A program made the translations under genes and the position numbers. A DNA stretch of 64,000 nucleotides from Lindgomyces ingoldianus. Taxonomy: Eukaryota > Ascomycota > Dothideomycetes > Pleosporales > Lindgomycetaceae. Each line of letters opens with the position of its first letter. The stretch's first letter is position 1. A model generated the notes under the pieces. That model was not told the origin of the DNA. It saw only the letters and a program-made list of their open reading frames with translations, and did no database searches. The stretch lies in assembly GCF_010093535.1 (NCBI RefSeq), contig NW_022985209.1, forward strand, positions 302,319-366,318, in the 5' to 3' direction. Positions 11,185 through 62,959 of the stretch are shown here, piece by piece.

Positions 11185-11535
11185 TGTAACAGCACAGGCA
11201 AGACAATGGGTCCGAATGCGGTGGGAATCCACTTAGAGGCATATAGGAGTGCGTGGGGACTCTAAACCTGGGAATGCCATTAACACCTATAGGCCTTGTA
11301 TAAAAGGATATTAGAAAACTACTAAGCTAGCTACAAAAGTAAAGTGTAACTAAATACATAAGAAAATAAAAGTACAGTAAGAGGCAGGGCAGAGTTAGAG
11401 CTAATATAGGGTCCCTTTAGATAGGTTCTAGGCAACCTAAGATAAATATAATTTATAAAAATTAAGTTAAAGTTAAAGCTAATATAAGAGCCTTTTAGGC
11501 TATCTAAGATAGAACAATTTATAAGGATTATTACA
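11185..11535 (-). repeat. Left LTR of element E
   Basis: 351 bp. The outer part (from 11185) keeps C and G; the part facing the interior is mutated relative to the right LTR. Confidence 0.9.
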
Positions 11536-12834
11536 CTACCCTCCCCCCTCTATAGACTAATAGTCTTTATTAGTAGTTATAGTTTAAAGTATTGCTGTTA
11601 TATCCTTTACATTCTTAAACTAAAACTAGTCTAATTTAGCTAGGTGTCTTTGCTAAGTATTTCTTTACACTACTAGTAGTGTTCTCTAAACTAAACGCTA
11701 CGCATGTAGTTATTAATTATTAAAGTAGTAAGTGTAGTTTATTAATTAGAGCTAATTTAGATAGAATAATAAAGTCTTTTTTATAAGTCTTTCTTTCTAG
11801 ATTGTATGCTGTAAGGTAGGCTACTATAGCTTTAAAAGAGTTTACCTAGGTATGTTTAAAACTATAATTTAGTACTTATAGGCTAGAAGGAAGCTTCTTT
11901 TATAAGTAGAAAGACTAATTTAACTAAGATACCTTTTTTTTAATAGCTGCACTAATAAAGCGCGCTTTAAATGCAAAAAAAGCTTCTTCTTTATTTATTT
12001 TAAAAGTCTAGAATGCTTACTATGCCTTAGTTTTTTTCTAACTAGTAATAAAATAAGCTTATAAGAGCTTTATTATATCTTTTACACTCTTAAACTAAAA
12101 CTAGTCTAATTTAGCTAGGTATCCTAGCTCTAGATAATCCTTTATAATACTAGCTGTGTGTCTCTATATTAATGCTATATGTGCACACTTGCTCTAATAG
12201 TAATCTAAATTAATATTAAGTCTGTTTATAATAAAAGCTTACTATTATTTAAACATAGGTTTTTTACTATCTATAAAAATCTTAATCTTAAGTGTGCATT
12301 TAGTAAAGTAGATTTACTAGGTTTAAAAAGTACCTAAAAAGTCTCTTACACTTAGAGTAGCAAAGGTAGTATAAAGTGTTATTAAAAATAATTTAGTAGT
12401 TAGTAGAAGTTAACTAGCAGTTTTTAGCTAAATTAGCTGCTTAAGCTATACTTATAATTAAGTAATTTAATTATTAATAAATATACTGCTAAGGGTTAAC
12501 TCTAAATTAAGTAAAAGTATAGCTTTAGGTGCTGCAAAAGTAGGTTTAGCTAGAGCGTATTTTAATTCTAGAATTAAAAAGTAGTAGTGAGTTAGATATT
12601 AGTAGTTGTTTTTAATTCTAATAAATTATTAGTGGTCTTTAAGTTTCTACTTTAGCGCCTTTTTATAAATTTTCTAAAAGTAATCTTAATTATAGAGGAT
12701 AGAAAGTTTTAAACTTAAAGGCTTTAGTTAACTAAAGGTTAATAAGATCTAGTTTATAGACTAACTAGTTTAATATAACAGTGTGTAAGTATTATAACCT
12801 AAACTAAATTAGATGCGTTTTAAAGCTTAGATAT

Positions 12835-13049
12835 TGTGATGACAAGCACTGTCTCTACTACTGTATTCAGCTAGGGAAGCAAGGTAGAGTAGGTCGGCTC
12901 TATTTCAGCTAAACTAGGATGGGGAGTGAAGGAGGCGAAGGGTTTTCGCGAGAGAAAAGCTTGCGCAGCGCCAAGGCGCTAGCGCGCTCGCTTAACCCTT
13001 AGCGAGATCATGTGATTAGCAGCGGAGCTTGACAAGCAGCACCGTCACA
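12835..13049. mobile_element. Unmutated 215-bp solo LTR-like insertion
   Basis: A GC-rich island inside the AT-rich interior of element E, beginning TGTGATGACA and ending CCGTCACA, flanked by GATAT at 12830-12834 and 13050-13054. It contains GGCGCTAGCGCGCTCGC with intact CpG. Its base composition shows it arrived after the surrounding element was mutated, or was too short to be mutated. Confidence 0.8.
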
Positions 13050-13123
13050 GATATAGTTAAATAAATAATTAGTGTAATATTATAATAAGGCTGTTACTAG
13101 TAAAAGTAAGTTTTTTAATATAA

Positions 13124-13474
13124 TGTAACAGCATAGGCAAGATAATAGGTCTAAATGCAGTAGAAATCTACTTAGAGGCATATAGAAGTGCGTGGGGACT
13201 CTAAACCTAGGAATGCTATTAACACCTATAGGCTGTGTATAAAAGGATATTAGAAAACTACTAAGTTAGCTACAAAGGCGAGGTGCAACTAAATACATAA
13301 GGAAATAAGGGTACAGTAAGGGGCAGGGCAGAGTTAGGGCTAATACAGGGTCCCTTTAGATAGGTTCTAGGCGACCTAAGATAGATACAATTTATAAGAA
13401 TTAAGTTAGGGTTAGAGCTAATACAGGGGCCTTCTAGGCCATCTGAGATGGAACGATTTATAAGGATTGTTACA
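13124..13474 (-). repeat. Right LTR of element E
   Basis: 351 bp. Its outer end (towards 13474) keeps C and G (GGCCATCTGAGATGGAACG); its inner start is mutated relative to the left LTR. Confidence 0.9.
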
Positions 13475-14181
13475 CTAGATAGCTGTTGTCTACTTCTAGT
13501 TACCTAGCTAGACTGCTTTTAGCTGTTTTTATTTCTTTAAACTTATAATAACTACTCTAGTAGATATCTAGCTTATTATAAACTTTATTTTATTAAAGTT
13601 ATAATTATTATTATTTTAGATACTATTCTTAGCTTTAATATTCTTTATAAAGTTAAACTAGCTTTAAATTACTATAGAATTTTTATAAAAAGCTTTTTTA
13701 TAGTTATACTTACACGTAAACTTTACTTTAAGCTTTAAGTAGTGCTTAGTAAACATATTAAGCTAGTTTATACTAACATAGCTTATATTATGCTTAGTGT
13801 GCAAAGAATTAGCTATATTAGCTATAGCTGCTAGCTAAAGAGGAAATCCTTATGCATTTAGCTTAAGTATATACTAAATAATTACTTACTTTTTATTATT
13901 ATTTAGCTTTTATAAGTTAGCTATATAATTAGCTTAAAAAGGTTATCTAGTGTGTTAGTTACTTATTATCTTTTAAAAAACCTTATAGGTAGCTGCAGCG
14001 TGTTGCTTAAAAAGTGTTACATTTTATTTAAAAGCTTAAAGTGTAAGCTATATTTAATGTTCTTTTAACATGTTTAAGTAGTGTTATTAGAAATACATTA
14101 GTGTAAAAAAAGTAGTGTAGTAGAGTCTTAGCAAAAGTAAGTAACTTAGGTGTGTAAGTAACTCGCCTGTAAAGTACGTTA

Positions 14182-36998: not shown

Positions 36999-38489
36999 AT
37001 GGCACCGCACGAAGAAGTGGTTGCCCACATTGCAGCTGCAGTAGGGGCCTTCTTTAGTAGCAAGCAATCGTTTCGCATCTTCCATGGGTCGACCAACAGC
37101 ACTCGCCCCGCCCATGACAGCCGTGTTGTCGATATCACTGCGCTTTGCAATATTCTGAAGGTTGACAGACAGTCCAGTACGGCCACTGTTGAACCAAATG
37201 TTCCCATGGACAAGCTCGTCCAGGCTACTCTTGCTCATGGCATGATCCCCCCAATTGTGATGGAGTTTCCAGGCATCACAGTGGGTGGAGGCTATGCTGG
37301 GTCTGCAGGCGAGAGTAGCTCCTTTAAGTATGGGTACTTTGATCAGACTGTAAGATCAGTTGAGATGGTTCTTGCGACTGGAGAGGTTATCACGGCTTCT
37401 GAGTCTGAAAACGCTGATATATTCAAGGGAGCGGCTGGGGCTCTTGGGAGTTTAGGTATCATAACAAAGCTTGAACTAAGGCTTATTCCAGCCAAACGTT
37501 TCGTTAAGTTGATATACCATCCATACTCGACCAGGCATGACACCATCAAGGCTCTCCGACAGGCAACAGAGGACCCAGACAACGATTACGTGGATGGTAT
37601 CATGTTCTCTAACACTCACGGAGTTCTGATGACTGGTCAGTTGATTAATGATATTCCACCGTCTGAAAGTCCGCAGAAATTTAGTGGGTCGTGGGATCCC
37701 TGGTTCTATCTCCATGCAATGGAAAAGCCTCTTGGGAAACAATCTACCGACTATATACCAATAGCCGAGTATCTGTTCCGTTATGATCGAGGTGGCTTCT
37801 GGGTCGGAAAACAGGCATTCAAATACTTCGGCTTTGTCCCATTCAACCGATTCACTCGGTGGTTCCTTAACGATTTCATGCATACTCGGATGATGTACAG
37901 AGCGTTGCACGGAAATAACATGTCTTTTGGGACTATGATCCACGACCTTTCCCTGCCTTACGACACTGTGGAGGAGTTCATCGACTATACAACCCAGAGG
38001 CTTGGGATTTGGCCCCTGTGGCTCTGCCCTCTGCGCGCCATGGATCCCCCAACATTCCATCCTTGCACCACTAGTCCAAAACGAGGCGAAACACCCCAGC
38101 CAATGCTCAACATCGGTCTCTGGGGCGCGGCTTCGAAGGACATGGACACCTTTATTCGCCAGAACCGAGATTTAGAAGCCTGGCTCACAGAGCTAGGCGG
38201 TCGCAAGGTCCTGTACTCCCACACCTATTATACAGAAGAGGAGTTTTGGCAACTGTATGATCGGAAGTGGTACGAGGCACTGAGGCAGCGCTACTCCGCT
38301 ACTACTCTACCAACTGTGTATGACAAGGTGAAGGTCGACGTTTCTCGGCAGATGCAAACTCGAAATGTACCTTGGGTTCGAAGACTGGCGCTATTGTGGC
38401 CTTTTGCCGGATTTTTGGGGATATGGTGCGCAATTCGAAGCAAAGATTATCTTATTCATAGGCGGTTGAGCTGGATGAAAGGAAGTTAG
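36999..38489 (+). CDS. DHCR24/DWF1-like FAD-linked oxidoreductase
   Basis: Single exon, 496 aa, close to the usual length of Delta(24)-sterol reductase-like proteins. The N-terminal FAD_binding_4-type domain reads FRIFHGSTNSTR (about residues 25-36), STATVEPNVPMDKLV, then the FAD-loop segment MEFPGITVGGGYAGSAGESS and KYGYFDQTV, and GALGSLGIITKLELRLIPA. The C-terminal part has the family's Trp/Tyr-rich ends (YTEEEFWQLYDRKWYEALRQRY, TVYDKVKVD) and a hydrophobic stretch, LALLWPFAGFLGIWCAI, that may touch a membrane. The expected reaction is reduction of a sterol side-chain or related C=C bond, but the fungal substrate is unknown. The frame is fully open, with no RIP-type stops, although mutated transposon DNA lies on both sides. 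Confidence 0.9.
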   Translation: MAPHEEVVAHIAAAVGAFFSSKQSFRIFHGSTNSTRPAHDSRVVDITALCNILKVDRQSSTATVEPNVPMDKLVQATLAHGMIPPIVMEFPGITVGGGYAGSAGESSSFKYGYFDQTVRSVEMVLATGEVITASESENADIFKGAAGALGSLGIITKLELRLIPAKRFVKLIYHPYSTRHDTIKALRQATEDPDNDYVDGIMFSNTHGVLMTGQLINDIPPSESPQKFSGSWDPWFYLHAMEKPLGKQSTDYIPIAEYLFRYDRGGFWVGKQAFKYFGFVPFNRFTRWFLNDFMHTRMMYRALHGNNMSFGTMIHDLSLPYDTVEEFIDYTTQRLGIWPLWLCPLRAMDPPTFHPCTTSPKRGETPQPMLNIGLWGAASKDMDTFIRQNRDLEAWLTELGGRKVLYSHTYYTEEEFWQLYDRKWYEALRQRYSATTLPTVYDKVKVDVSRQMQTRNVPWVRRLALLWPFAGFLGIWCAIRSKDYLIHRRLSWMKGS

Positions 38490-38788: not shown

Positions 38789-38852
38789 ACGTACTTTACA
38801 GGCAAGTTGCTTACATACTTAAGTTGCTTACTTTTACTAAGACCCTACTAAA

Positions 38853-39471
38853 TGTTACGGCCAACAGTCAGACCGTAATGACCCAACTGGCTGTCCCACA
38901 CAGCCCGAACAACGTCGGATGGAAAACGCTTAGCCCCGCGCTGAGCGAATCACGTGACAGGACAGATAAGGAATGGCTCCAGCTTTTAGACAAAAGCCTG
39001 GCGGAATGCATCGTCCAATGAGGACCTTAGCATTGCAGGCAGTGCAGGTATTGCAGGCTGTTGCAGGCAATGCATGCAGCACCTGCAACGCATGCAAGCG
39101 CATGCAAACCCTATGTATATAGTCCTAATCACAACTATAGTTAGAAGGTTATAATTACTGTTTAGTTTATTATCTACTCTTACCCCTTTAATAAACTAAG
39201 AAGCATTAAAACCTTTATAAATAAGACATTACTAACTTGTATATCTTACACTATATATACCTCTACTCCTATCCCCACAGATTAGGTTTACTAGCTCCCT
39301 ATACAGCCGCTGGGTTAAACCACAAGCCTGCCTACTCTACCCTCTCCATTCCCGCACTCTGCTAGACAGACTGTACACCTAATCTAGCTAAGTTCTCCCC
39401 TCTCTACTAAATATTATTATAGGCTAACGTACTCCTAAAAATACTATTTTGCTAGAGTAAGGATTGTAACA
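38853..39471 (+). repeat. 5' LTR of gypsy A
   Basis: 619 bp. The first about 200 bp (outer side) are unmutated relative to the 3' LTR; the last about 150 bp (inner side) are mutated. It contains a TGCA/GCAGG-rich tract at 39035-39110. Confidence 0.95.
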
Positions 39472-42400
39472 GTAATCACTGCTACCTGCAAAGTATAGCT
39501 ACTACTACTTTAGACATTAGCATGACAGGCGCTTCAGCTGCTGGCACTAGCTAGACCCCCACAGCAACTAAAGAAGCATAAAATTAGCAGATACTCTATC
39601 TTTAAAACAAGCTTAGACAGCTTAAACAGCACCTCTAGCTACAGGCATAATAAGGAACCCTAAACGCCTACTAGATCTAAGCCCTCTAGCTAAAAATAGC
39701 TAACCTTAGAAACATTACTTAAGAAAGAACTAGTATTAAGTCTAAAAAGACCTTACGCTTAGCCCCCCCTAAAGCATTTAATAGCTCTGCTAAAGACTTA
39801 AAACCTTTCTTTACTAAATGCTACCTTTACATGTAATACAACAAAGGTGCCTTTAAAATAAATAAAGAAATAATTTTATAGATAAGCTTATACTTAGAAA
39901 GATTACCTACTATTTAGTTCTAACTTTATGCTAATAATTAGATAAGCTATAAGGCAAATAGTAAACCTTTATTACTAAAAACATAAAAAGTCTTTAACAA
40001 CTTTAATTTATTTAAAGCAGCTCTAACTATAATCTATAGGCTAGTTAATAAAGAAAAATAAGCAGTTAATAAGATAAACGCTCTCTAATAGAGCAACAGC
40101 TCTGTCTAATAATATGCAGCCTGCTTTAGGGAACTGCTAGCCATCTATAGATAGACAGACAAGAAGGCTGTAGGACAAATGTTCTACAAAGGGCTTTTAG
40201 ATACTATTAAAAATAAATTTACTTATACTAGAAAGCCTAAAAGCTTTAAGGATTACATTAAAAAAGCACTTACTTATAATAAAAGACATGCTAAATAATG
40301 TAGTAAAAAAGAAAAAGGCTAGACAACTAGAAAACCTAACTAGTTCTAGAAGAAGAAAAAAGTTCTACAGGCTAATAGTAAACCTATAGACCTTAGTTAC
40401 GCTAAACACATGCGTAGCTTCTCTAAGAAAAAAAGTAATACCTCTAGAAGTATAAGGCCACCCCTAAATAAGGAATAGAAGAAATAGCTTAAAGAAAAAG
40501 CATGCCTTAACTGCAGAAAAGTAGGCTACTTCTGTTAAAAATGCCTAGACTCTAAATAACTAGGGAATAAAAATAGTAGATTAACTATAAAAGTAATGTA
40601 TATAAAATAAGGTCTAACAGAATAAGAGATCCTAGAAAGATTAGATAAACAACTCTGCTAGTAATACAGAGATAATTATAAATCTAAAAGATGCTTTATA
40701 GAATACTAAAAAGTTAAAGTATAAGATAATAATAAAGCCTTTAAAGCACTAAAACAGGCAGCTACTTATAAAGGATAGTAAGGCTATACCTAAGCTGCAA
40801 CATATGTCGCGAACATTTTAAAAAAAAAAGAAAAGTTTTCTTTAGAATAACTAATAATAAGAATCTTTGCTTAGAAGCTAAGATATTAATTTACTTATAG
40901 TAACTGCTAGAAATATAGTAATACACATAACATATAAAGCTGTAAAAAATTAATGTATAAAGTGCGCATTAATAATAATGCTAAAACCTACAGTATACTA
41001 AAAGAAATTGCTAAGACACATTACACAGTTATAAACACTAAAGAATAATAAAAGATGTTCTAGAAAATTCTTAACAACAGAAAAGGCTCTAACTAGTAAT
41101 GCACACTACTATTAACACCTAACCTATGTTAAGAACAAACTACTACTTCTCCCCTAGCATTAGCTATTACCTGCAAAGACCTAGAAATCTAATAAGATAA
41201 GAGATATTATATTCCCTGTAGAAGTAAGTAACATAATAAGTTCTAGTGTACCTACTAAAGTTACCTGCTATAAATAATAAGAACTAAGGAATATCTAAGG
41301 TAGACATAAGTTTAACTAATCCTAGTACAAAACAACCTTTAGGGATGTCCCTACACCTAGTACCTATGCAGCAATAAATACTGTATTAAGCACTAGCTAA
41401 CTAAGCATAGGGCTAGCTAATGCCTTATTAATAGAGTATAGTGTAAAATAAATTTAACTTAAAACAGAAGAACTTATTACTAAAGCTAAAAGAACTAACA
41501 ACTAGATATCCTTTAACATACTACTGCTAAGAGGCAAATACTAAGCAATACTAGGCTATAACTAGCTCTATAAGCATAACCTACTAATTAATTAGTAAAC
41601 TATGTCCTTAACTAACTAGAATTGCAAGGAAGCAGCACAGTTAGCCTTCTATAAAGACTTTAGTAGGACCTATTAGCAAGAAATGTAAAAAAGTTCCCCT
41701 GTTAGGAACTAGAGGCCTAGGCTGTCTAGCTAATAAAGGAAGAGCTAGAAGAAATCTTTTTTAAAGAATTTAAAAAAGAATAAGACCTTAATTAGGTTAG
41801 AATCTATTAAATAACCTATAAAACAACTAGACTACTAGAAGAATACTAAGACTATAAGAATATGTTTAAGACCCTAGAAGATCTAAGAGAACTGCTACTA
41901 CATTAGCCCTAGGATTACGCTATTAATTTTAAGCTAAACCTACAGCTAAAAACACATAAACTATAACCCCTAATAAAAGCTTAGAAGGACGCTTTGCAAA
42001 AGTACGTAGACAGAATGCTAGCTTAAGAACACATTAGAGAAAGCAACAGTTTAGTAGCATTAGCAGTAGTTTTTACAAAGAAGAAAAATAGCAAAGTAAA
42101 AGTATGTTAAGATTACTAAACCTTAAATAATAACACTATAAGGGATTAATACTCTTTACTAATTATTTAAGACATTATAAACTAACTTAAAGGAACTAAA
42201 CACTTTACTAAGTTTAATGTCTAAGATAGATTTAACAAAATAAGGATTAAAAAAGAACACAAATAGATAATAGCTTTTTAAACCTTAGGAGGATTATATA
42301 AACTTCTTATTATGCTATTTAGACTAACTAACGCCTTAGCAACCTTCTAATAAGTTATTAACACTGCACTTAACCCCTACCTAGATATATTTGTACTTAT

Positions 42401-43468
42401 GTATCTAAACAACGTTCTAATATACACTAAAAAGGACTAAGAAGACTATGTATCTAAAGTAAAACTTGTACTTAACTAACTCTAATAATATAGACTTTAC
42501 TTATAACTAAAAAAATGTAAGTTTAACATATAAAAAACTAAATACTTAGGATTTATTATTAATAAAGAAGAGATAAAGATAGACCCTGCTAAAGTAAATA
42601 AGGTACTTAACTAGCTAACACTAACAATAGTAACAGAAATTAAAGGATTTCTAGGCCTTACTAGCTACGTACAAAGAATAATTAAAGACTACTTAAAAAT
42701 TACACTTCCCCTTACAGACGCCACCTTAAAAGAAAGGGCAGCTTAGAAATTCTAATAGACAGTAGAAATAGAAGAAGCCTTTTAGAAGCTAAAATAAATA
42801 ATAACAAGCTACTCTATCCTTAGAATGTACAACTCTACACTAGAAACAAAAGTGCACACAGACGCCTTCTTAAGAGTAGAGGAAGCAGCACTCTCTTAAA
42901 AACAAGAAAATAGTTAATAGCATCTAGTAGCTTATTACTTAGCAAAGTTTACACTACTAGAACAGAAATATACTATCTCTAATAAGGAACTAAAAGCTAT
43001 AGTTAATGCATGCAGAAATTAGAAAGTTAAGCTCTAAGGTCTTAGTTAATAATTTATAATTCTTACTAACTATGTAAACTTTATTACCTTTTTTACTACT
43101 AAAAAACTCTCACCTATGCATGTACAATAGGCTATAGAACTTGCCTAATTTAATTTTATTATTAAACATGTAGCTAGAAGCAGCAACTAGCAGGTAGACG
43201 CCCTAAGTAGACATGCTAACTACTTTAAAAAAGATAAAGAAAATTCTAAAGAATTTATAATCTTTAAAAAAACTCTAGAAGAACTAATCTATAGAGGACT
43301 AGACTAAGAGAAACTACTATGTTCCTTTATAATAGTTAAACAAGAATAGAAAAACCTAATAAAGAAATATTATAAAGCCCCTATGTTTAGACACCTAGGA
43401 ATTAGATTGCTATAGAAGAAAATTAAAACAGCTATACTCTAAGAAGTACTCTAATTAAAACACTTATG

Positions 43469-44062
43469 TGTTACAATCCTTGCTTCGGGAAGCACTCAGG
43501 TCTGTTGGTATTCCTCGGGGGGAAGGAGGACGGATATAAGGGGCCAATCCGGTAGGGTGTACAGTCCTACGTACAGGCTATTGGGCTAATGGAGGCTTGT
43601 GGAGAGTGACCGGATTGTGGTTTGCCCTATGTGCGGCAGTAGGGAGGCCAGGGTCAAACAGTCCTTATCAGACAGGGTTAGAGGTATATATAGTGCAAGA
43701 TATACAAATAGTATTGCAGCTCCTTAGAAAGCTAAATGCTACTTAGTCTATGTAGAGAATAAACTAAACGTTAAACACACCTTCTAAAGGTTGTTTAAAG
43801 TGGGAACTATATACATGTGCTGGGACGCTAAGGGGAGTTGGCGGAGTCTATGGGAGCCTGCTAAGGGGAGCTCCTTGAGCTCCCTTGAGCTCCCCCAAGA
43901 CGCGGCCTGTTTCCTTACTAGACAACGCATTCTTCTATAATCTCGGGCAGCCGCGCTATCTCCTTGTCTTCTGATTGGTCTGTAAGCGAGCCCTGTCCCA
44001 ATCCAGCTAGATTGTGGAGCACCGCGGGTGGAGTTACGTTGGTCCAACCATAGACCGTAACA
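43469..44062. mobile_element. Unmutated 594-bp solo LTR inside gypsy A
   Basis: Begins TGTTACAATCC, ends GACCGTAACA, and is flanked by TTATG at 43464-43468 and 44063-44067. It interrupts the gypsy coding region between RNase H and integrase. Its composition is GC-balanced with intact CpG and CpA, unlike both flanks, so it arrived after its host was mutated. It contains a TATATATAGTGC promoter-like box at about 43686. Open frames at 43784-44100 are not regarded as genes. Confidence 0.85.
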
Positions 44063-45909
44063 TTATGTACTAAAGTCTTACAGGAATGTAATACCCGCAA
44101 CTAAAATAATTCTAGACAACACAAGCCCTATAGATTACTTTAGCTAATTATAGCACTAACCTAGCTATAGATAATAATAACTATAGACTTTATTACTAGA
44201 CTGCCACCCTTACGCAAACTTAGTACAAAAAGACTCTATAATATAATCACACAGGTTATAGACAAAACTACTAAATTTGTTTACTTATAGCTATTAAAAA
44301 AAACAATTACAGCTAAAGAATTTATGTTTAAACTAGAAAAAAACGTCCTAGCTATTTATAGTTACCCTAAGATTATTATCTTAGACTATAATAAATTATT
44401 TACTAGTAAATTCTAAACAGCTATAATTAAACACCTTAGAATTAACTATAAACTCTCTACTGCTTATTACTTATAAATAGACAGACAAACAGAAAGAGTA
44501 AACACAGAAGTAGAAAAGTATCTACGCAAATATGTATTATATAAGTAGACAGACTAGGCAGAATAGCTGCTAATAGCGCAGTTTACTATTAACACCTTAG
44601 AATTAGCTACTACTAAAGAAACCCTATATAAAGCTAATTTTAAATACGCTCTAAGATATAAGCTCTATAAAGCACAGCTAACAGACCTCTCTAAAGCTAT
44701 AGACTGCACAACTAAACTTTTAGAGTTGCACTAGAAACTTACTAAAAAAGCGTAGTTAGCTAAGGAAGCTATAGAAAAAACAATAAATTAAAGAAAAAAA
44801 CTAGCACTAGAAATACACTCTAATAATTACATATACTTAGACATAAAGAATCTTAAAACACTTAGGCCCTCTAGAAAGCTAGCTAAAAAACATATAAAAC
44901 TATACTAAGTTATATAAACACGCCCTAGTATTTGCAAACTTAAGCTTTCTAAAGAAATGCAGATACATCCTTAGTTCTATGTCTTTAAGCTTAAACTTAC
45001 GCCTAAGACTATTCTACTTGCCACTACTAGATAGAAAGAAGAAGAAAAGAAATATAAAGTAGAAAGAATTTTAGACTATAAAAAAGACAAATACCTAGTA
45101 AAATAGAAAAGATAGCTTACTAGCAAAAATACCTAAGAACCTATTAAAAGCCTGTTAAACACTCCTTAGGCCTTTTATAAATACCTAGAGTCCTTTCTAA
45201 ATAAAACTATTCTAGAGAAAGCTCTCTAGACTAGAAAACACTATTATTAGTTAAAACTATAGTAGCATTAGCTAGCTATAATGTAGGAAGTCTGTAACCA
45301 TTTAACATAGGTTAAAAAGAAGGAAGACTAGCTGCTTCTGCTTTAAGCGCTTTAAGCTTATCTAGTAATAAAAGGTCTTTTTTTAGATACTTTGCTTTTT
45401 AATCTACTAAAACCTTTAACTACTTCTAAACCTATTCTTGCTAAGCTATAAAAGACTAAAGACGCCTTAAAGACTTAGCTTACTTTTGCATCTCTCTTTT
45501 CTTTTCTTTTGTTTTCTTCTTTTTAGCTGCTTCTAGCTCTCTAAGTAGCTTTTTCTTCTCACACTTTAAATAATCTTAGGCTGCATTAGAAATAAAAGTG
45601 TTATAGTAACTACCTTTTTGCACACACTCTACACACTTGTCTAATAATAAGGATATTATGTAGGAGAAACTATAAGACTAGCATAGACTACAGGGACGCA
45701 TCTTTATACAATAAAGAGGATTAAGGCAAGTAACAGTATAAAGGCAACAGATAACAGCAGAAGAATAAAAAACCTAACAAGGCATAGTTAAGAAAGATTA
45801 GTATTAGACTAGCTTTTAAAGACAGAAATGCACTAGCTAAAAAGAAAATCTAACACTTGCAATAGAAAAAACATAACAGTAAAGACGCTAATTAGAAGGG
45901 AAGCCTGCG

Positions 45910-46528
45910 TGCTACAGCTAACAGTTAGACTATAATAACCTAACTAGCTGTCCTACATAGCCTAAACAACGTTAGATAGAAAACGCTTAGCCCTACGCTA
46001 AGCAAATTACGTGACAGGACAGATAAGGAATAGCTCTAGCTTTTAGACAAAAGCCTAGCAGAATGCATTGTCTAATAAGGACCTTAGCGTTGCAGGCAGT
46101 GCAGGTATTGTAGGCTGTTGCAGGCAATGCATGCAGCACCTGCAACGCATGCAAGCGCATGTAAACCCTATGTATATAGTCCTAATCACAACTATAGTTA
46201 GAAGGTTGTAATTACTGTTTAGTTTATTATCTACTCTTACCCCTTTAATAAACTAAGAAGCATTAAAACCTTTATAAATAGGACATTGCTAACTTGTATA
46301 TCTTACACTATATATACCTCTACTTCTATTCCCACAGATTAGGTTTACTAGCTCCCTATACAGCCGCTGGGTTAAACCACAAGCCTGCCTACTCTACCCT
46401 CTCTATTCCCGCACTCTGCTGGACGGACTGTACACCCAATCTAGCTAAGTTCTCCCCTCTCCACTAAATATCATTATAGGCCGACGTACTCCCGAAAATA
46501 CCATTTCGCCGGAGTAAGGATTGTAACA
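45910..46528 (+). repeat. 3' LTR of gypsy A
   Basis: 619 bp. The inner start is mutated (TGCTACAGCTAAC), while the outer end keeps C and G (CCGACGTACTCCCGAAAATA). Confidence 0.95.
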
Positions 46529-47308
46529 CTAAACTACTTAGATATGCTAAAAGAATATTAAATATAGCTTACACTCTAAGCTTTTAAATTAAATATAAAA
46601 CTTTTAAAAAAACATGCTATAGCTATGTATAAAGTTTTTTAAAAAATAATAAAAAACTATAGCACTAGACAACTTTTACAAGCTAATTCTATAGCTAACT
46701 TATAAAGGCTAGGTAATCATAAGAAGTAGGTAATTATTAAGACTATACTTAAGCTATATGCATATAGATTTTCCTCTTAAATAGCATTTATAGCTAATAT
46801 AGCTAATTCTTTACACGCTAAGCATAATCTAGGCTATATTAGCATAAACTAGCCTAGTATATTTAGAAAGTGTTATCTAGAGCTTAAAGTAACATTTAAG
46901 CGTAGTATAACTATAAAAAAAGCTTTTTATAAAGGTCCTAGAGTAATTTAAAGCAGGTTTAGCCTTATAGAGAATATTAAAGCTAAGTATAGCATCTAGA
47001 ATAATAACATGTATAACTTTAGCAAGATAGGCTTTATTATAGGCTAAATATTTATTAACTATACTTATGCTTAAAACTTTACTTTAAGCTTTAAATAATG
47101 CTTTATAAACATACTAGGCTAGTTTATGCTAATATAGCCTAGATTACGCTTAGCGCGCAAAGAATTAGCTATATTAGCTATAAATGCTATCTAAGGGGAA
47201 AATCCTTGCGCATATAGCTTAAGCATAGTCTTGACAATCACCTGCTCCTTGTTATTGCCTAGCCTTTGTAAGTTAGCTGTAGAATTAGCTTATAAAGGCT
47301 CTACTTTA

Positions 47309-50541: not shown

Positions 50542-50793
50542 TGTTGAATGGACTCTCTGCTAGCTAGCACTTGGTGTCAGCAAATGCGTACAAGACGGAG
50601 AGGTTTGCACGGTGTAAACATCGCACAGGGGTGTTAGGTAACTAGTGTTAATTGCTTCTTGTTATTTCTATTGTACAAAGGAAAGGGGTTAATATAGTCC
50701 TAAACTCTGCGCACAGATCTCTGTGCACAGAGATCTAGGCGCATCTAAGCTATGTGACTATTAACTAGGCGCCTAAATATTACTATTTAAATA
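50542..50793 (-). repeat. Left LTR of element C
   Basis: 252 bp; outer start unmutated (TGTTGAATGGACTCTCTGC), inner end mutated (TATTTAAATA against TATTCGGACA in the other LTR). Confidence 0.9.
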
Positions 50794-50886
50794 TTAGTAA
50801 CTTTTTCTTTTTCTTTTATATAAGACTTGCCTTATTTACACATATAGTAGACAGGTTGCTATAGGGCCCTTTTTACCTATCTTATA

Positions 50887-51986
50887 ACGTACTTCATGGG
50901 CGAGTTGCTCACACACCCGAGTCACTTACTTTTGCCAAGACCCCACTAAACCACCCTTCCTACACTAATGCATTCCCCACAACACTACTTAGACGCGCTA
51001 AAAGAATGTTAGATACAGCTTGCGCTCTAAGCTTTTAAATAAGACATAAAACTCTTAAAGAAATGTGCTATAGCTATGTGCAAGGTCTTATAAAAGACAA
51101 TAAATAACTATAGCGCTAGACAACCTTTATAAGCTAATTCTACAGCTAAATTACAGAGGCTAGGCAATAAAAAGGAGCAGGTAATTATTAAGACTATACT
51201 TAAGCTATATGCGTAAGGAATTTCCCCTTAAATAGCATTTATAGCTAATATAGCTAATTCTTTGCGCGCTAAGCGTAATCTAGGCTATGTTTGCATAAAC
51301 TAGCCTAGTATGTTTGTAAAGCGTTATTTAGAGCTTAAAGTAACATTTAAGCGTAAGTACAACTATAAAAAAGCCCTCTGCAAGAGTCCTAGGGTAATTT
51401 AGGGCAGGTTTAGCCTTATAGAGAATATTAAAGCTAAGTATAGCATCTAGGATAATAACACGTATAACTTTAGCAAGATAGGGTTTATAATTAGCTAGAT
51501 ATCTCTTAACTATACTTGCGCTTAAAACTTTACTTTAAGCTCTAAATAACGCTTTATAAACATACTAGGCTAGTTTATGCAAACATAGCCTAGATTACAC
51601 TTAGCGCGCAAAGAATTAGCTATATTAGCTATAAATGCTATCTAAGGGGAAATTCCTTGCGCATATAGCTTAAGTATAGTCTTAATAATTACCTGCTTCT
51701 TTTTATTACCTAGCCTTTGTAATTTAGCTGTAGAATTAGCTTGTAAAGGTTGTCTAGCGCTGTAGTTATTTATTGTCTTTTATAAGACTTTGCATATAGC
51801 TACAGCACATTTCTTTAAGAGTTTTATGTTTTATTTAAAAGCTTAGAGTGTAAGCTGTATCTAACATTCTTTTAGCGCGTCTAAGTAGTGTTATAGGGAA
51901 TGCATTAGTGTAGGAAGGGTGGTTTAGTAGGGTCTTGGCAAAAGTAAGCAACTCGGGTGTGTGAGCAACTCGCCCATGAAGTACGT
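50887..51986. mobile_element. Foldback element A4 (1100 bp, 480-bp arms)
   Basis: TA-flanked. The left arm 50887-51366 and right arm 51505-51986 are near-perfect inverted copies of the 5' end of the Fot1-like A element; the 138-bp centre continues the transposase sequence from the left arm. Non-autonomous. Ends are GC-preserved (CATGGGCGAGTTGCTCACAC) while the arms inside are AT-rich. It lies inside copia-like element C. Confidence 0.85.
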
Positions 51987-54900
51987 TATAGGCTTAAGTC
52001 TATTAACTAACACTTTAACTTTAACAGTTAGTTAGTTATATAAAATTAGTTTTTTAAGAGCAGAGTTTAGCGCCTTCTTTATATAGGCATTTATAGAGTT
52101 GTCTCTTTTATTAATCTACCTAATCTTTATAATCTTTCTTTTATTATATAATTTTTAAATTAATATAATATTAATTATAAGTCTTTTCTTATTTATTATC
52201 TTAAGCTTTATAAGACATTTATACAAAAATCTTAAATCTATGCATAGTATAATAGGTATAGAAGGTATTCTAAGCATATGTGTAATCTAGTTAATAGTTG
52301 TACTTAGTGTAATTGCGCAGTTAAATCCTCCTACTATTCTGTACAGCTTACTAGCTAGGATAGAGCAGGTAACGCGTTTACACTTAGAGAAGTTCTAGTG
52401 TATAATATTACTTATAATTTTAAAGTTATATAAGTTCCTAGTTTATTACTTAGTTTTAAGAATAATAAAAAAGCTAAGCTATAAACTTAAGTTCTTATTA
52501 TTTATAAATAATTTATTAGTAAAGATAAACAACTTTATATAGAAAAGATTAAGTAGTACATATAATAATCTTTTATTCTAGTTATTAATTTACTATTAGA
52601 TTTATACATTTAATGCCTTAATATTGTTATACAACAGCAACACAACTTAAGCGGCAGTAGACAGGTTAAATGCTGCCTTAGGTTAACATACTAATGCAAT
52701 ATAGGCACCTTGCGCGCGCTGTTCAACGTACTTCTGCGCGGCATCCTCTACCTTAGACTCTATTATGTGTAGATTTTTAGCTTAACCTTTTTATATAAAA
52801 ATAATATTATTTTATATAAAGTAGATCTTTCCTTTATTAAATTTAATAGCTTAATTATGTAATAGTATAGTCTTAGGCTTTACTTAAAAGTTAGCTTTAA
52901 GCAATTTTTTTTCTCTTTTTATGTAAAATTAGCTATAATAATACTAAGAGTATTATTTATCTACAGTCCTATAATACTAAACACTGTTAGGCTTTTATGT
53001 GTAATTAATAAGCATAAATTATATAATAAGGTTTTTATAAAAAGTCTATTTTTATAATAGTTATAGTATGTCTTAAACTAATACAAGCCTAACTCTGCTA
53101 CGCTGTATAGTAGTTATACAACTCTAAATATTATGTGTAGAGAGAAGCTTTTATAAAGTTCTCTTAGTAGTTATGTAAAAAGAGTGTAAATAAGCTTATC
53201 TATTAATTATACATATACCTAAGTAATATTGTGTAGTTTATAGTGCATGTTATATAAAGCTATTAGTAATAGGCTAATAGCTAGAATTAACCTCTAACTT
53301 ATTTTCTAAATTATAAAAAACTATGTAAGAATTTTTTTCTTCTTTTTATTTAAATATTTTATAAACATAAGTTGTAACTTTTTATATAGTTTTATTAATT
53401 TCTCTTTAACTTTATATATAAGTTAAAGGTTAAAGATCTGTCCCTTATAAATTAATAAATTATATAAAAGTACCTTAAACATACTACTTATAATTAAACT
53501 TTTTATTTCTGTATAGTCTAATTCTTTAAATAGTCTTCTAGGTGTTATAATTACACTGTCTACATAGAGCTTAATTGCTAGCGCGTAGTCTTTCTTTTTC
53601 TTTTAAGTTAGAAATGTTGTAGCCTATAGATTCTTATATAGTCTCCTTTAGCCTTTTTTAGCTAGCTATAGTTCTAGTTTTAGTTTATATAATAAATTTA
53701 ATGCTACTTAAGGGGCTGTTTTATGTAGTCTATTAACTAGAGTTAGTTGCTTGCGTAGGCAACCTCTCTTTTATGCCTGTAGAGGATCTCTTTATACTAG
53801 GGCTAGTTTGTCTAGATCTAGTAATTCTTATATAAGTTTATTCTTATCTTTTATATAATAATATAGCATAACTTATATGTAGTAGAGTTTTACTAGACTG
53901 TTCTTTATCTTAATAATAATGTTTAAAGCCTTAATTTCCTTTACTACATGTAGTCCTGTCTATTTCTTCTTCTTTTACTATGTCTTTACTTTAGAACTAA
54001 GTAGGAGATTTAGTACTTTATATAAAGTTAAGCTATTTTAGGTATTAATTACATAATTAATATTAACTTTTACCCTTTTACTTTAAAGCATTCTTATTGC
54101 CTTTTATATAGCATTAGCCTGCGTAGTAATGTTAGAAGATAGTGTAGAATCTATGTTAATTCTTAAGTATATTCTAAATATAAGTAATATAAGTATAAGA
54201 CTGTTTAGTTTTACTATATTATTTAAGGCTTTAACAGCTATCTATAACACTAATTTATTATTTATATAATTATCTAATTCTGCACAGAGGATATTATATG
54301 CATGTTGTAGTAGTGCGTGCGCGCGCTTAATCTTCCCTATAGCCTAATAGGCTTCTACTAGCATTTGTTAACATGTTGCTCTTATAATCTTTATGTAATT
54401 CTAGAAATCTTTAAATGCAAAGTTTATACTAGGGTTATGTATAATATAATTAAGTAGGCCTTAGTACATGTTAATTTAACACTTGCAGAGCGCGTCTTAA
54501 GTATCTTATATAGACATTAATTTTAAAAAGGTTGCTGCTTAGAATAATATATTTATGTTAATTATATGTAGTACGTTTTAGTTACTAATTTATATAACAT
54601 TAATTACTATTTTATAGTTAAAGTGTAAGTTGTCTTTAATTATAAACTTAAATCTTTATAGCGCTAAGTTATGTAGCTAACATATATAGCAGAACTTCTT
54701 AATTTTCTTAAGTATAGAGGGATTAACATTATGTCTAGTGTTTTTAAGCATTGTGTAAAGTTGTTTTATATAAGAATAGCTAAATTTTCTATATAGTTGT
54801 TAAAGTTTATGTTTAGTAAAAAAAAACATTAATTTCTTCTTTTATATATTAAAAAATAGATAACTCTATTTTTGTATAACTAGGACAGTATTTCTATTGC

Positions 54901-57296: not shown

Positions 57297-60200
57297 TGTC
57301 ACGATTGTGCACGAGTAAGGTTATAGAGCTTCACAGAGGTCTAGTTTAATTACTACGTGAGGTATTATAGTAGGTACAAGATGTTGTGTGAGGAACAAGA
57401 AGGTTTAGAAGAAAATTAGTAATTAAATACTTAGCTTAGAAGTCTAAGCGCTTTAGGTATAAATTAAGCCTATTTTAAGTTTAGTTAGTGTTAAAGCAGT
57501 TTATACTTAAGTTTATGTCTATATTATGTTATGTTTATGTTAGACGTGCACTAATAATACTCTAGTACATGTCTAATACAGTTATGTCTAGGATCTAGAG
57601 AGGATACTGTAACAGTACCCCCCCCCTTATTAGAAAAGGAATTCTTTACATTAGTAGTTCTAGCATTAAGTTGTTTTTATTAGGGTATAGGTTTAGTTTA
57701 GATAAGTATTAAGTGTAGAATTAAGTTACTATAGAGTTCTTTTGTAGGGCTTCTGCAGGTTTCTATAACAGTTTGTTATATCTAGTCTATTTTATAAAGT
57801 ATTTATAAATATGTTTCTTTTTATTAAACTAGATCTATTTAATGTCTTTTACAACATATTCTAGTTTATTATTTATAATAATAAGTTTAAGTAGCAGGTT
57901 TAGCTATCTAGGTAGATAGTTAGATTTAGAGGCTACTTAGCGCAGCAACAATACATAGAACACAGGGTGTATTTTTATGCTGTTAGGTAGGATTAATTAG
58001 TAAGTATATAATAAGACTATATAAGCTACTATAAAGGGGCTAAAGTTCTTTTAATTAAGTTTCTTTAATTATTAGTTTATTTAGATATTTCTAGCGTCTA
58101 GCTAGACCTTCTTGCTAGCTGCATACGTAGGGGTAAGGGTTTAGAATTAGTTTATGTACTCTTATTAAAGAGCTTAAGCCTATGTAAGCTTTTTATAAAC
58201 ATATTTAGATATATTTTAAATCTTATTAATAAGTCTATTTATGTCTATTACTTATATAAATTAATAAGTTAGTTAAGAGGTATTTAAAAGTAGTTTAAAT
58301 TCTATTTAGAGGTAGTATCTATAGTTTGCTAAAAACAAAGATACTTATGTTAATTTAAATATTATGTTATTAGCTTTAAACTATGCTATAGCTAACTATT
58401 TTACCTAGTTATTCTACTAGTAGTTTGTGTACACTTATAGGACTTATTTTATTACAGTGTTTGTGTTCTTAGTCTAGCTATTAGTCTCTAAGTAAAAAGC
58501 TGTAGATAGATAGGGGATAATTTAAAGCTATTTACAGAGTTTGTTCTAAAAGGCTAAGACAAACTGCGTACCTCTGTCTAATATAATTATGTTAGGTAGG
58601 CTATAGTAAACTTATACGTATTAGTAGAATAACTAGGCTATATTAGGGGCAGTTATAAAAGAACATAGTATTAAGTGTTAATACTTAGTTAAGTAATTAA
58701 TAACTACTATAATATTTATATACTCTTTAAATAGAAGTAGGTTTATAATAAAATTAATTAATATGTCTTTTTAAGCTTATTTAGAGATTAGAAGTAGTTT
58801 AAGTAGGCTATTATACTTTTTTTAAAAGGCCTTTACTTTACAGCAAGTATAGCAACATAATACATATTAGCGTACAGTATAGAACATGCGGGGCTAGTAG
58901 TACTCTCTCTGTAGTAGGTTAAGAGTCTTTTCTCTGCCTAGGTATCCTTTAATAGGCAAGTTATATATAATTTAGAGTAGTTTAATTCTTAGTTTATTAA
59001 AATTAGAGATTATAAGTTAGTTATAGTAATATAGCTTACTATTTTAGTTTTTATAGTTAGCTAGTGTTACCTTCTTTAACTAACTAGTGTTATTTTAGAG
59101 TAGGTCTAAGGTTTCTTAGATAAATTTATTATTTAGATACTTATTAGTAATAATTTAATTAATTATTTAATTTATTTTATTTAAGTTAAAGTTTAAAAAT
59201 AGCTTAAGTTAAAGTAAAGTTTAGTGTTAAGCCTTTTACACTTCTTTCTAAGTAAAGATGTCTTAGAATTGCTTTATAAAAGCATCTAGTTTCTCTTTAT
59301 TTTAACTAAAATAATAAGTAATCTTAAAATTAAAATAAAACAGGTATTTAGACTAATAGGCTTATTAGTAGCTAAGTTATTTTATAGTTACAAAGTACTA
59401 TAAGTTCTTATAGTTAAATAAGACCTATATTAGATGCGCTGCACTTTCTAGTTTAGGTTGCTATTATTTAAAGTAGTGTACTATAGTAAGCAATTTCTTA
59501 TTATAGATCTTATAATTACCTTCTATAGAACTTATTCTTTTTAAAAAATATGTAATAGGCCTAATAGTCCTGTCTAGCTTAGTCTAAAAAAGAACTCCTG
59601 CTACTATATAGTCTAAGGCATTAGCTTTTATAAGTATTAGTAGTTTAAAGTTAAAGTAGTAGAGTATTAAAGCTTTAGTAAAGGCTTTCTTTAGCTAGTT
59701 AAAAGACTATTAGTAATTTAAGTTAAAGTTAAATTAGATTTTTTTTTTAGTAAGTGTAATTATAAAGCTTACTTACTATAAAAAGTTGTTAATAAATTAT
59801 TAGTAAAAGTTAGTAAATTCTATAAAAGCTTAAACATCTTTTATGTTTTTTAAGTATTACTAATCTAGCACAGTTTAAACCTTAATAGGGTTTATTTAGA
59901 TACTATCTATAAAGATTACATATTCTAAATATATAACCTTTAATTAGTAGAACTTATATTTGTCTATGTTAAGTTATAGACCTGCTTCTTTTATAGCCTT
60001 TAGCACTAGGCGTACATGCTGTTTGTGCTTTAAAAGGCTATTACTATAAATTAGAATATTATTAATATACATAGTGCAGAACATGTCTAGGTAGGGTTAA
60101 AGCAAGTTGTTTATAAAATATTAAAAAGTACTAGGCGCGTTAGCTAAGCTAAAGGGCATTACTAGGTACTTAAATAGTCTGTATTAGGTCTAAAATACTA

Positions 60201-62959
60201 TTAGCTACTTATTACCCTTTACTATCTTTAGCTTATTAAAGGCAGTAATAATATTTAACTTTATAAAATACTTTACTTTACTTAGTTAGCTTAGAGTTTT
60301 CTATAAAAAAGGAATTAAGTATTAGTTTTTAATAGTAATAGTATTTAGTCTTTAGTAGTTAACATAGAATTAAAGCCTACCTCTAGGTTTCTTTATAAAT
60401 AGTATAGGTAACACTACTAGTAAGAAGCTAGCTTAAATAAACCTTTTTTTAAGTTCTTATTAAAGTATTTTTAGAGCACTTTTAATTTATTTAGTAATAT
60501 CTTATATAGTAGCCTATAACTAAGTTGTTTGCTAGGCTTAAAAGTTATTTAGTAATTATATAGATGTTATATTAAAAGCTTATTAAACTTATCTTAAAAA
60601 AAAATATGTAATAAGTTATAGTAGTCTTAAAAGACTATTATTCTTAAGTTAGTGTATTTTTAGAGAGCTAAAGCTTAGTCTATATTAGAAATTATAACTG
60701 TGTAGATTTTATAATCTAGTTATTAAGCTAGGGTTATAAATAAGGCAGGTTCTATATAGCAGATGTTTATTTACTGTTTAAGTTCTAGTTTATGTTTAAA
60801 TTAAGTAAGTAAAAATTTCTTAAAGGCTTTCTTTTTTTTAAGTTTAAGTAGTTGTTAAATTATTTTACATAGCCTATTTTAGTAAAAGGCCTAGCTTATT
60901 AGCTTTACTTAAGTAGTTTTTTTTTAAGTTATTAAAAAGTAAGTCTAAAGACTTTCTATATTAAGTGCTACTTAGGTATTATTTAAGTGTAAGTGTAAGC
61001 ATATGTCTTAGTATTAAAAAGAGTTAAAGTTTAGAACTTACTCTTAGTAATTAAAGGCAACTTTATGCTAATATAGCTATAGTTGTTCTAGAATTAAGTT
61101 ATAACATCTTATGTTTATTACATAGAGCTTAATCTACTCCTTATAGTGTTAGTAGGTAATTATAATAGTTATAGTATAAAAAATAAAACTTTTTTTAAGT
61201 TATTTTTTATTAAATCTAGTTAAGTAAATTATTTAGGTAAGTAGTGTTAATTAAAGATTTAGTTTACATGCTAGTTTTTTATTAATATAACTTATGCTAT
61301 TTACTTCTAAGTTAATAAGAGCTTATATTAGAGCTAATATAGTTTTTTATTATAAATATATAAAAATATTAACTTAGTACTTTTAGTTGTTAGTAGGGGA
61401 CTTAGCCTATAAGTTAGCAGAGATCTAGTGTTAAATTAGTCCTAAGAGGCAACTTAGCCCTAGGGCAAGCCTTTTTACAGGCTTCTACTGCTATAGCTGC
61501 AGCTACATTAAGAGTAGTAAAAAGAATTAAAGCTTAAATATAAGTTAAAGCCTTTATAAAAATAAAAATAAAATAGTAAGAATTTTTAATAAGTGCTAGC
61601 AGCACTACTTACATAAACTTAAAAAAAAGAAATAAAGTAGTTTTAAAAAATATAACTATACTTACTACACTTAAAGTATTAATTTTTTTTTTTATAATCT
61701 TTACACTTTCTAGAACTAACTAAAGCATAATTTAAATTAATTTTTATTATATTAAGGTTCTTATTTACAACTGCACTAGTTTAGAGGCGTATTAGGGCTT
61801 GTATAGGGAGGAACCTTATGTTATTATTATAGGTAGTAATTAGGTTTACATATGCATTAAAGTTGTTTAAAAGGGGTTTTCCTACTATAGCGTGTTATAG
61901 TTTAGTTAAAAGGGAGTTATATAGAGCTATAATTAGACCTATTTTATTTAGGCCTGTATTAAAAGCAAGTTAGTAAAACTTAGTAAAGTGTAAAGTAAAG
62001 CTTTTTTTTTTTTATTATAAAGTGTTTAAGTAACTTAGAGCTGTTAACTTTTTATTTAAGTCTTTATAAGTTACTTATAAAAACACTATAAATTAATCTA
62101 AGTTAATAATATCTTTATTTATTAGTAAGTTAATTAAAGCTATTATATTATAATTAAGTTAAAAGTAAGTGTATAGTAACTAGAAGTGTTTAAAAGAAAA
62201 TTAGTCTATGTTTTCTTTAAGTTTATATTAAAGCTTATGTAGAAAGGAAAGTAGGTCTTTCTATTTTCTATTAAACAGTAAGGGATTAGGGAGTTAGTTA
62301 GATTTTATTACTAAGTTAAAAAGGTTATAAGTTATAGGTAGCATTAAGTAGAAAAAAGTTAAGCTATTTTTAGACTTTTAAGTAAGCTTTAAGGCTAGTA
62401 AGTTCTTAGTTTTTACTACTATAATAAAAGTTAAGGCAGAAATAGACTACTTAATAATATAAAGCTATTTTTTAAAGTCTTTTTAAAAAGCTTTAAAGCT
62501 TATAATATAGCAGCTTTCTTATAAAGTAAGCACTTTTTAAAAAGCTTTTTAGCTTACTTTAATAGCTTAAAGTTATATAAGTACTAAGCTTATTAAATTA
62601 AATTTAGAGGCTATTCTTAGCTAAAGTTTTAACATAATGTAATATTATAATTATGCATAAGTAAGGTTATAGAGCTTTACAGAGGTCTAGTTTAATTACT
62701 ATATAAGGTATTATAGTAAGTACAAAATGTTATGTAAGAAATAAAAAGGTTTAAAAAAAATTAGTAATTAAATACTTAGCTTAGAAGTCTAAGCACTTTA
62801 GGTATAAATTAAGCTTATTCTAAGTTTAGTTAGTGTTAAGGCAGTTTATGCTTAAGTTTATGTCTATGTTGTGTTGTGTTTATGTCAGACGTGTACTAAT
62901 AATACTCTAGTACGCGTCCAATACAGTTATGTCTGGGATCCGGGGAGGATACCGTGACA
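57297..62959 (-). mobile_element. Ty3/gypsy element B, full length (5663 bp)
   Basis: LTRs of 318 bp (57297-57614) and 317 bp (62643-62959), target duplication CTCTA at 57292-57296 and 62960-62964. A C-rich tract (about 57617-57625) next to the left LTR is the reverse complement of the polypurine tract, so coding is on the minus strand. Integrase sequence matching the fragment at 1311-2410 is at about 58450-58600. A reverse transcriptase YINNILIYS lies at about 60045-60075. Heavily RIP-mutated, no working frame. Inserted in the 3' LTR of element C. Confidence 0.9.

What the first reader, a model, noticed from the sequence alone, without database searches (positions are those of the whole stretch)
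38853..46528. RIP stops short of element edges: outer halves of LTRs spared, inner halves mutated
The two LTRs of one element start identical, so they act as an internal control. In gypsy A, 12 of the 13 differences I counted in the first about 55 bp are C/G in the outer (5') LTR and T/A in the inner (3') LTR. At the other end of the LTR the polarity reverses: the 3' LTR keeps ACTCCCGAAAATACC and the 5' LTR reads ACTCCTAAAAATACT. The same sequence is thus mutated or spared only according to its distance from the element boundary.
Basis: seen in the sequence. Interest (0 to 1): 0.8.

Follow-up and report, generated by a model that had tools for sequence, protein, structure and literature searches.

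The report
RIP leaves transposon ends unmutated
In this fungus the genome defence that riddles repeated DNA with C-to-T mutations stops about 100 to 180 bases short of both ends of the long repeats tested, so these transposons keep two clean caps, which gives a way to measure how the cell recognises repeated DNA.

Summary
Gypsy A (38853-46528, TSD CTAAA) has two 619-bp LTRs with 50 differences, all transitions. In the first 150 bp, 23 are mutated in the inner copy and 1 in the outer; in the last 150 bp the sign flips (1:13). All 19 paired members of the family show it (426:5 and 8:321), and so do three more LTR families: 39 of 44 pairs examined were usable, and all 39 agree. At the RIP motif YpCpR, 2 of 959 sites within 120 bp of an outer edge are mutated only in the outer copy. 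Un-RIPped solo LTRs used as references put the half-rise 96-183 bp from each edge: a fixed zone, not half an LTR. A non-LTR foldback element has the same caps (90 of 96 surviving YpCpR sites within 120 bp of an edge). Ten of 11 solo LTRs (about 600 bp) are nearly clean. Best reading: RIP with an edge exclusion zone set by homology recognition. The zone is shown, its cause inferred. Ten literature searches showed no earlier report; a Zymoseptoria study reports the opposite trend.

The parts
38848..38852 (+). left target-site duplication CTAAA
   Evidence: flank print
38853..39471 (+). 5' LTR of gypsy A; outer end clean, inner part RIPped
38853..39020 (+). left spared cap (25 YpCpR sites at 38859-39020)
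   Evidence: island list; pair differences
39472..45909 (+). internal region of gypsy A, RIPped (YpCpR 0-1 per 100 bp over most of it), interrupted by a nested solo LTR
   Evidence: track; (mean of 19 elements 0.44 per 100 bp beyond 619 bp from an edge)
45910..46528 (+). 3' LTR of gypsy A; inner part RIPped, outer end clean
46333..46528 (+). right spared cap (18 YpCpR sites at 46333-46511)
   Evidence: pair differences
46529..46533 (+). right target-site duplication CTAAA
43469..44062 (-). nested solo LTR of family C (594 bp, GC 0.50), not RIPped although RIPped DNA lies on both sides; TSD TTATG on both sides read by eye
57297..62959 (+). gypsy B, LTRs about 318 bp (core used in counts: 57304-57614 and 62650-62959), same polarity 16:0 then 2:16; LTR start and TSD CTCTA read by eye
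11185..13477 (+). family D short LTR element (LTR about 351-355 bp), same polarity 14:5 then 0:22; TSD CTAGA read by eye
50883..51990 (+). foldback (non-LTR) element E, arms of 466 bp; all 19 remaining YpCpR sites lie within 96 bp of an edge
12835..13049 (.). 215-bp high-copy repeat inserted in element D, this copy un-RIPped; 40 places listed (this one plus 39 others at 93-98% identity)

Best explanation
This is repeat-induced point mutation (RIP) with an edge exclusion zone. After insertion the element is recognised as a repeat by homology with its other copies, and cytosines (here mainly in YpCpR) are turned into T on both strands. A cytosine is mutated only if the shared homology continues roughly 100-180 bp beyond it on the outer side, so each long repeat keeps two clean caps. 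In an LTR element the caps fall in the outer ends of the two LTRs, and as the LTRs start identical their differences point inward. Shown: the caps, their dependence on position, similar width at both ends and in several families, and their presence in a non-LTR element. Inferred: that RIP is the mutator, that the caps come from homology recognition (frayed or too short pairing at the end of homology) rather than from another edge effect, and that the zone reflects a pairing length.
For: LTR pairs: 19 of 19 family A elements (18 fetched plus the window), 18 of 19 with perfect 5-bp TSDs; 426:5 in the first 150 bp, 8:321 in the last. Families B (6 of 10 pairs usable), C (4 of 4), D (10 of 11): all usable pairs agree. 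YpCpR sites within 120 bp of an outer edge mutated only in the outer copy: A 0/578, B 0/50, C 2/105, D 0/226. Whole gypsy A elements (19), YpCpR per 100 bp by distance to the nearest edge: 14.1, 11.3, 5.6, 1.1, 1.1, 0.44; gene-rich DNA at 16-24 kb 13.4. Half-rise 125-171 bp (A) and 96-183 bp (C) at LTR length about 600; conditional fit A 151, B 130, C 122, D 150 over LTR lengths 311-619. Foldback element E: 90 of 96 YpCpR within 120 bp of an edge in 5 copies, 20.7 expected by length. DNA outside gypsy A is also poor in YpCpR (0.76-2.7 per 100 bp), so the caps lie between two depleted stretches. Short repeats: 10 of 11 solo LTRs keep 44-66 YpCpR sites; the window's copy of a 215-bp repeat is clean. 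Two C5 methylase loci; that one is DIM-2-like and the other RID-class is recalled. In N. crassa as few as 155 bp of perfect homology between close repeats trigger RIP and 220 bp promote substantial RIP (PMC4858203, passage), about the size of the zone.
Against: One genome only. In Zymoseptoria tritici the most distal windows (5% of TE length) held 35% of the de novo meiotic mutations found within TEs, mostly owing to LTR elements (PMC10294615, passages): the opposite trend. RIPCAL reports one Stagonospora family with slightly more RIP towards the ends, though non-tandem rDNA repeats are hit most in the centre (PMC2621366, passages). RIP is elsewhere said to leak outward into flanks (PMC7296669, passage). 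The width is not constant (96-183 bp; about 100 in E). Outer-zone mutations exist: 2 of 105 YpCpR in C, and in the weaker motifs ACA, ACG, GCG 12 of 943 within 120 bp (A 1/537, B 5/163, C 0/89, D 6/154; summed). A zone of about 140 bp alone does not explain why the middle of a 600-bp solo LTR is clean, so a length threshold is also needed. Conditional fits do not separate 'fixed distance' (nll 519.4) from 'fraction of LTR' (518.1); the separation rests on solo-LTR references. Comparisons across copies leave a floor of 0.03-0.10 in the outer zone, read as differences older than insertion.
Confidence: 0.76

Rival explanations
1. Kinetic edge effect: RIP acts up to the very end of homology but much more slowly there, so ends are late rather than excluded.
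For: The rise from the edge is graded (logistic scale 10-57 bp); single outer mutations exist (2 of 105 YpCpR in family C; 12 of 943 at weaker motifs).
Against: Inner LTR ends are 0.78-1.00 mutated at YpCpR in the last 40 bp while, given an unmutated twin, sites at 1-60 and 61-120 bp are 2 of 34 and 0 of 39, so any rate at the end is small beside the interior.
Confidence: 0.3
2. The mutated zone is the transcription unit (R to R): mutation follows transcription or RNA-guided marking, so the 5' U3 and 3' U5, which are not transcribed in cis, are spared.
For: In family A a TATA-like stretch lies at about LTR position 263 (read), so U3 and U5 happen to match the spared sides.
Against: With solo LTRs as references, both copies of family A are already 0.67-1.00 mutated in nearly all bins between 181 and 420 bp (one bin, 181-240 with L090 as reference, is 0.17 in both), so the boundary is about 140 bp from each edge and not at one shared R position. 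The foldback element without LTRs has the same caps. Fitted distances are alike in LTRs of 311-619 bp.
Confidence: 0.03
3. Regional cause: slow deamination of methylated cytosine in heterochromatin, with a chromatin boundary at the element.
For: The mutation type fits methylation; two C5 methylase loci exist.
Against: The caps lie between a depleted interior and depleted flanks, and a 594-bp solo LTR and a 215-bp repeat stay clean inside RIPped elements. A regional process would not skip them.
Confidence: 0.05
4. Ends were restored by gene conversion from clean copies, or kept by selection for transposition.
For: Clean solo LTRs exist that could act as donors.
Against: The same sequence is mutated at the inner side of the same element, so sequence-based repair or selection would not pick the outer copy in 39 of 39 usable pairs; selection on the ends of already inactivated copies is not expected.
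Confidence: 0.02

Closest known systems
Repeat-induced point mutation (RIP) of Neurospora crassa and other Pezizomycotina
   Same: C:G to T:A nearly only, both strands, CpA-type sites hit, repeats hit and gene-rich DNA spared, short repeats clean, C5 methylase genes present.
   Different: [quoted passage not shown] here the outer 100-180 bp of the homology is left out. Context is YpCpR with CpG as strong as CpA.
RIP of crapaud LTRs in Podospora (PMC10787394, abstract and passages)
   Same: LTRs of full copies are RIPped while most solo/fragment LTRs are not.
   Different: In the passages I saw, LTRs are treated as whole units by GC content and no inward polarity is mentioned; the excess of clean solos is left open. 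Edge caps offer a further account: recombination between two RIPped LTRs brings together the two clean outer ends.
De novo RIP along TEs in Zymoseptoria tritici (PMC10294615, passages)
   Same: RIP mutations are unevenly spread along LTR elements, with a special behaviour of the ends.
   Different: There the distal windows gain most new mutations, the reverse of the standing pattern here.

Membership tests
RIP | C:G to T:A transitions, hardly any other change, on both strands | tested here: met
   Family A pairs: 604 C-to-T plus 447 G-to-A against 14 transversions (summed); window pair 50 of 50 transitions.
RIP | CpA preference | tested here: inconclusive
   Deeper than 250 bp: TCA 0.81, CCA 0.85, but TCG 0.90, CCG 0.89, ACA 0.24, GCA 0.18 and YpCpY 0.18-0.23: YpCpR rather than plain CpA.
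RIP | acts on repeated DNA above a length threshold | tested here: met
   1.1-kb and longer repeats RIPped; 594-619-bp solo LTRs mostly clean (10 of 11); window copy of a 215-bp repeat clean. Solos could not be dated, and four of the 11 came from a search ranked by likeness to a clean copy.
RIP | does not run far into neighbouring non-repeat or short-repeat DNA | tested here: met
   Nested solo LTR and 215-bp repeat inside RIPped elements are clean; they may have inserted after RIP, so this is indirect.
RIP | RID-type methylase in the genome | tested here: inconclusive
   Two C5 methylase loci. One best matches solved chains 9baq and 9bap (1244 and 1456 aa, named DNA (cytosine-5-)-methyltransferase; that this is DIM-2 is recalled). 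The other has 42 hits, one of them, near the end of the list, named DmtA (that DmtA is the RID class is recalled). No tree was made and dependence was not tested.
RIP | occurs in the sexual cycle before meiosis | not testable with these tools
   Needs a cross.

The most novel reading that the evidence does not exclude
Probability: 0.5. Interest if true: 0.82.

Novelty: new variant of a known kind. Interest (0 to 1): 0.66.

Why it matters
How intact double helices are compared for RIP is an open question. LTR pairs are natural experiments in which one sequence sits at two depths from the edge of homology, so the depth rule can be read from an assembled genome without a cross. In practice, caps would bias LTR dating, RIP indices and TE end annotation, and they may help explain clean solo LTRs.

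Tried and rejected
Relative-position and distance-from-inner-junction models: nll 518.1 and 531.1 against 519.4 for fixed distance; relative position was not decided there, and solo-LTR references then spoke against it. A first tally of polymorphic columns across all copies mixed in older subfamily variants and was replaced by within-pair counts. Pooling all CpA plus CpG seemed to show a low mid-LTR; much of it came from GCA sites, which are rarely hit here. Transcription, chromatin, conversion and selection: see rivals. Whether nested insertions create new edges could not be tested because the order of events is unknown.

Rows dropped. Family A: 20 elements fetched, 18 paired; L027 has only 272 bp of its 3' LTR in the stretch, L028 shows one LTR only (element or solo, not resolved). 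Family B: 10 pairs examined, 6 used; L052 and L055 hold only the start of the 3' LTR (first-half counts 7:0 and 17:2, in line); L057 and L063 hold no recognisable 3' LTR (85 and 73 transversions; counts 15:3 then 9:10, and 6:7 then 9:4); L053 had no partner stretch because the contig ends. Family D: 11 examined, 10 used; L037/L038 align poorly (5:6 then 7:14, first half not in line). Left-end sample (40 hits each, 13 and 7 already held): A 27 fetched, 3 solos, 20 5' LTRs, 4 dropped (L089, L096, L097, L107); C 33 fetched, 4 solos, 28 5' LTRs, 1 dropped (L130, a 3' LTR). L077, L082, L087 and the nested solo came first from a search ranked by likeness to the clean nested solo, so they lean towards clean copies; L082, L087 and the nested solo recur in the left-end search. 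Loci L001-L008 were not used.

Literature: ten searches; others returned nothing. Seven papers were seen as passages only.
Full report
WHAT IS THERE. The window lies in a 68.4-Mb assembly of 99 contigs. An open frame at 36999-38489 is closest, among named proteins, to Cucurbitaria berberidis (84%) and Massariosphaeria phaeospora (81%) (that these are Pleosporales is recalled), so the host is a fungus of that kind. Gypsy A runs from 38853 to 46528 with two 619-bp LTRs and a CTAAA duplication on both sides, so its edges are exact. All 50 LTR differences are transitions.

HOW GENERAL. Searching the genome with each LTR scored 40 of 860 and 40 of 856 candidates. Of 20 elements fetched, 18 had both LTRs in the stretch; with the window that makes 19, of which 18 have a perfect 5-bp duplication. 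In all 19 the first 150 bp are mutated in the inner copy (sum 426:5) and the last 150 bp in the other (8:321). The copies were found by likeness to one or the other window LTR, but each pair supplies its own control. Three more LTR families were tested: B (core 311 bp, window 57297-62959), C (594 bp) and D (about 354 bp, window 11185-13477); 6 of 10, 4 of 4 and 10 of 11 pairs were usable, and every usable pair shows the same reversal. The poorly aligned D pair did not.

CONTEXT. At sites deeper than 250 bp, compared with un-RIPped solo LTRs, the mutated fractions are 0.81-0.90 for TCG, CCG, CCA and TCA, 0.18-0.27 for ACG, ACA, GCG and GCA, and 0.18-0.23 for YpCpY. The motif is thus YpCpR. Using it removes most noise: within 120 bp of an outer edge, sites mutated only in the outer copy are 0/578, 0/50, 2/105 and 0/226 in A, B, C and D, while inner LTR ends (last 40 bp) are 0.78-1.00 mutated. 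At the weaker motifs ACA, ACG and GCG the outer 120 bp has 12 of 943, most of them in B and D at 61-120 bp. These counts are conditional on at least one unmutated copy. Given an unmutated twin, YpCpR sites at 1-60 bp are 2 of 34 mutated and at 61-120 bp 0 of 39, then 0.43, 0.34, 0.63 and 0.93 for 121-150, 151-180, 181-220 and 221-260 bp, and 0.70-0.93 beyond.

HOW WIDE. Pair data alone cannot tell a fixed distance from a fixed fraction of the LTR (nll 519.4 and 518.1), because sites mutated in both copies are invisible. Un-RIPped solo LTRs solve this, as actual genomic copies that serve as references. With them, families A and C show mostly 0.0-0.2 mutated up to 80 bp, a rise between about 80 and 180 bp, and mostly 0.7-1.0 beyond, with some lower bins (for example 0.53 of 146 in the A 5' LTR at 461-480 bp), at both ends (each copy is compared with several references, so counts are not independent). 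Fitted half-rises, two references each: A 5' end 171 and 138 bp, A 3' end 125 and 132 bp, C 5' end 183 and 147 bp, C 3' end 96 and 101 bp (4 LTRs). The middle of the long LTRs is mostly RIPped in both copies. So the sparing is an edge zone of roughly 100-180 bp, not half an LTR. The 19 whole gypsy A elements say the same: 14.1, 11.3, 5.6, 1.1, 1.1 and 0.44 YpCpR per 100 bp at 1-60, 61-120, 121-180, 181-240, 241-619 and beyond 619 bp from the nearest edge.

NOT AN LTR EFFECT. The foldback element at 50883-51990 has arms of 466 bp and no LTRs. In five copies (the window and L148-L151, of 40 full-length matches listed) 90 of 96 YpCpR sites lie within 120 bp of an edge; 20.7 are expected by length. 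The caps end at about 96-104 bp. Transcription from an LTR does not explain this.

NOT A REGIONAL EFFECT. Just outside the 19 gypsy A elements YpCpR is 0.76-2.7 per 100 bp, against 13.4 in gene-rich DNA of the window: the caps sit between two depleted stretches. A 594-bp solo LTR of family C nested in gypsy A (43469-44062) keeps 46 YpCpR sites. A 215-bp repeat nested in element D (12835-13049) is clean in the window; the 39 other places listed are 93-98% identical to it, which suggests that they are clean too, but I did not read them. Both may have inserted after the surrounding RIP.

SHORT REPEATS. Sampling LTRs by their outer 120 bp only, so that middle and right end are not selected, gave 7 new solo LTRs recognised by a 5-bp duplication on both sides; with four found earlier there are 11. 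Ten keep 44-66 YpCpR sites, spread along the length. The eleventh, L142, has 11, 0, 0, 0, 4 and 8 per sixth: clean at both ends, RIPped in the middle. That is what recombination between two RIPped LTRs would leave, or edge-limited RIP of a solo. Solos are as far from other copies in transversions as 5' LTRs are from each other (0.032-0.038 against 0.029-0.039 per site), so they are not one young lineage, but their insertion ages are unknown. A length threshold between about 0.6 and 1.1 kb, besides the edge zone, would fit.

MECHANISM. The change type, context, repeat specificity and length dependence point to RIP, and the genome has two C5 methylase loci, which I take from recall for DIM-2-like and RID-class. 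The edge zone is best explained by homology recognition that needs shared sequence beyond the target base. In N. crassa as few as 155 bp of perfect homology between close repeats trigger RIP, 220 bp promote substantial RIP, and mutation number follows homology length from 220 to 520 bp (PMC4858203, passage); a threshold of that size and a zone of that size may be the same thing, which is inference. A strong kinetic slowing at the ends is not excluded.

LITERATURE. Ten searches of the held library, with passages of seven papers, showed no report of spared caps. Against: in Zymoseptoria tritici distal windows of LTR elements gain most new mutations (PMC10294615), one Stagonospora family has slightly more RIP towards its ends (PMC2621366), and RIP is said to leak into flanks (PMC7296669). 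In Podospora, full-copy LTRs are RIPped and solo LTRs mostly not, with the reason left open (PMC10787394). Most subscription papers, the older RIP work among them, are not held, so earlier notice of an edge effect cannot be ruled out.

Noticed in passing
four LTR families, genome sample: RIP context here is YpCpR: a 5' pyrimidine is strongly favoured and CpG is hit as strongly as CpA; GCA sites inside LTRs mostly stay intact.
   Followed up: yes
window 12835-13049: A 215-bp repeat, clean in the window, inside element D; the last genome search scored 40 of 232 candidates and listed this place plus 39 others at 93-98% identity. May be a MITE; class not tested.
   Followed up: partly
L142: Solo LTR, RIPped in the middle and clean at both ends, with a perfect 5-bp duplication: a likely product of recombination between two RIPped LTRs.
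   Followed up: partly
window 50883-51990: Very abundant foldback family (2894 first-look candidates, 40 scored) with 466-bp arms; the 40 best full-length places are 95-100% identical to the window copy.
   Followed up: partly
window 36999-38489: Open frame of 496 aa, Delta24-sterol reductase-like with an FAD-binding domain, ending 363 bp from the left edge of gypsy A, in an un-RIPped island between RIPped stretches.
   Followed up: partly
window 13-747: Tandem-like repeat array at the left end of the window.
   Followed up: no
window 47624-47692, 48645-48711, 50546-50622, 63142-63194, 63339-63360, 63760-63859: Other short islands rich in YpCpR in RIPped DNA, perhaps caps of further elements not delimited here.
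   Followed up: no
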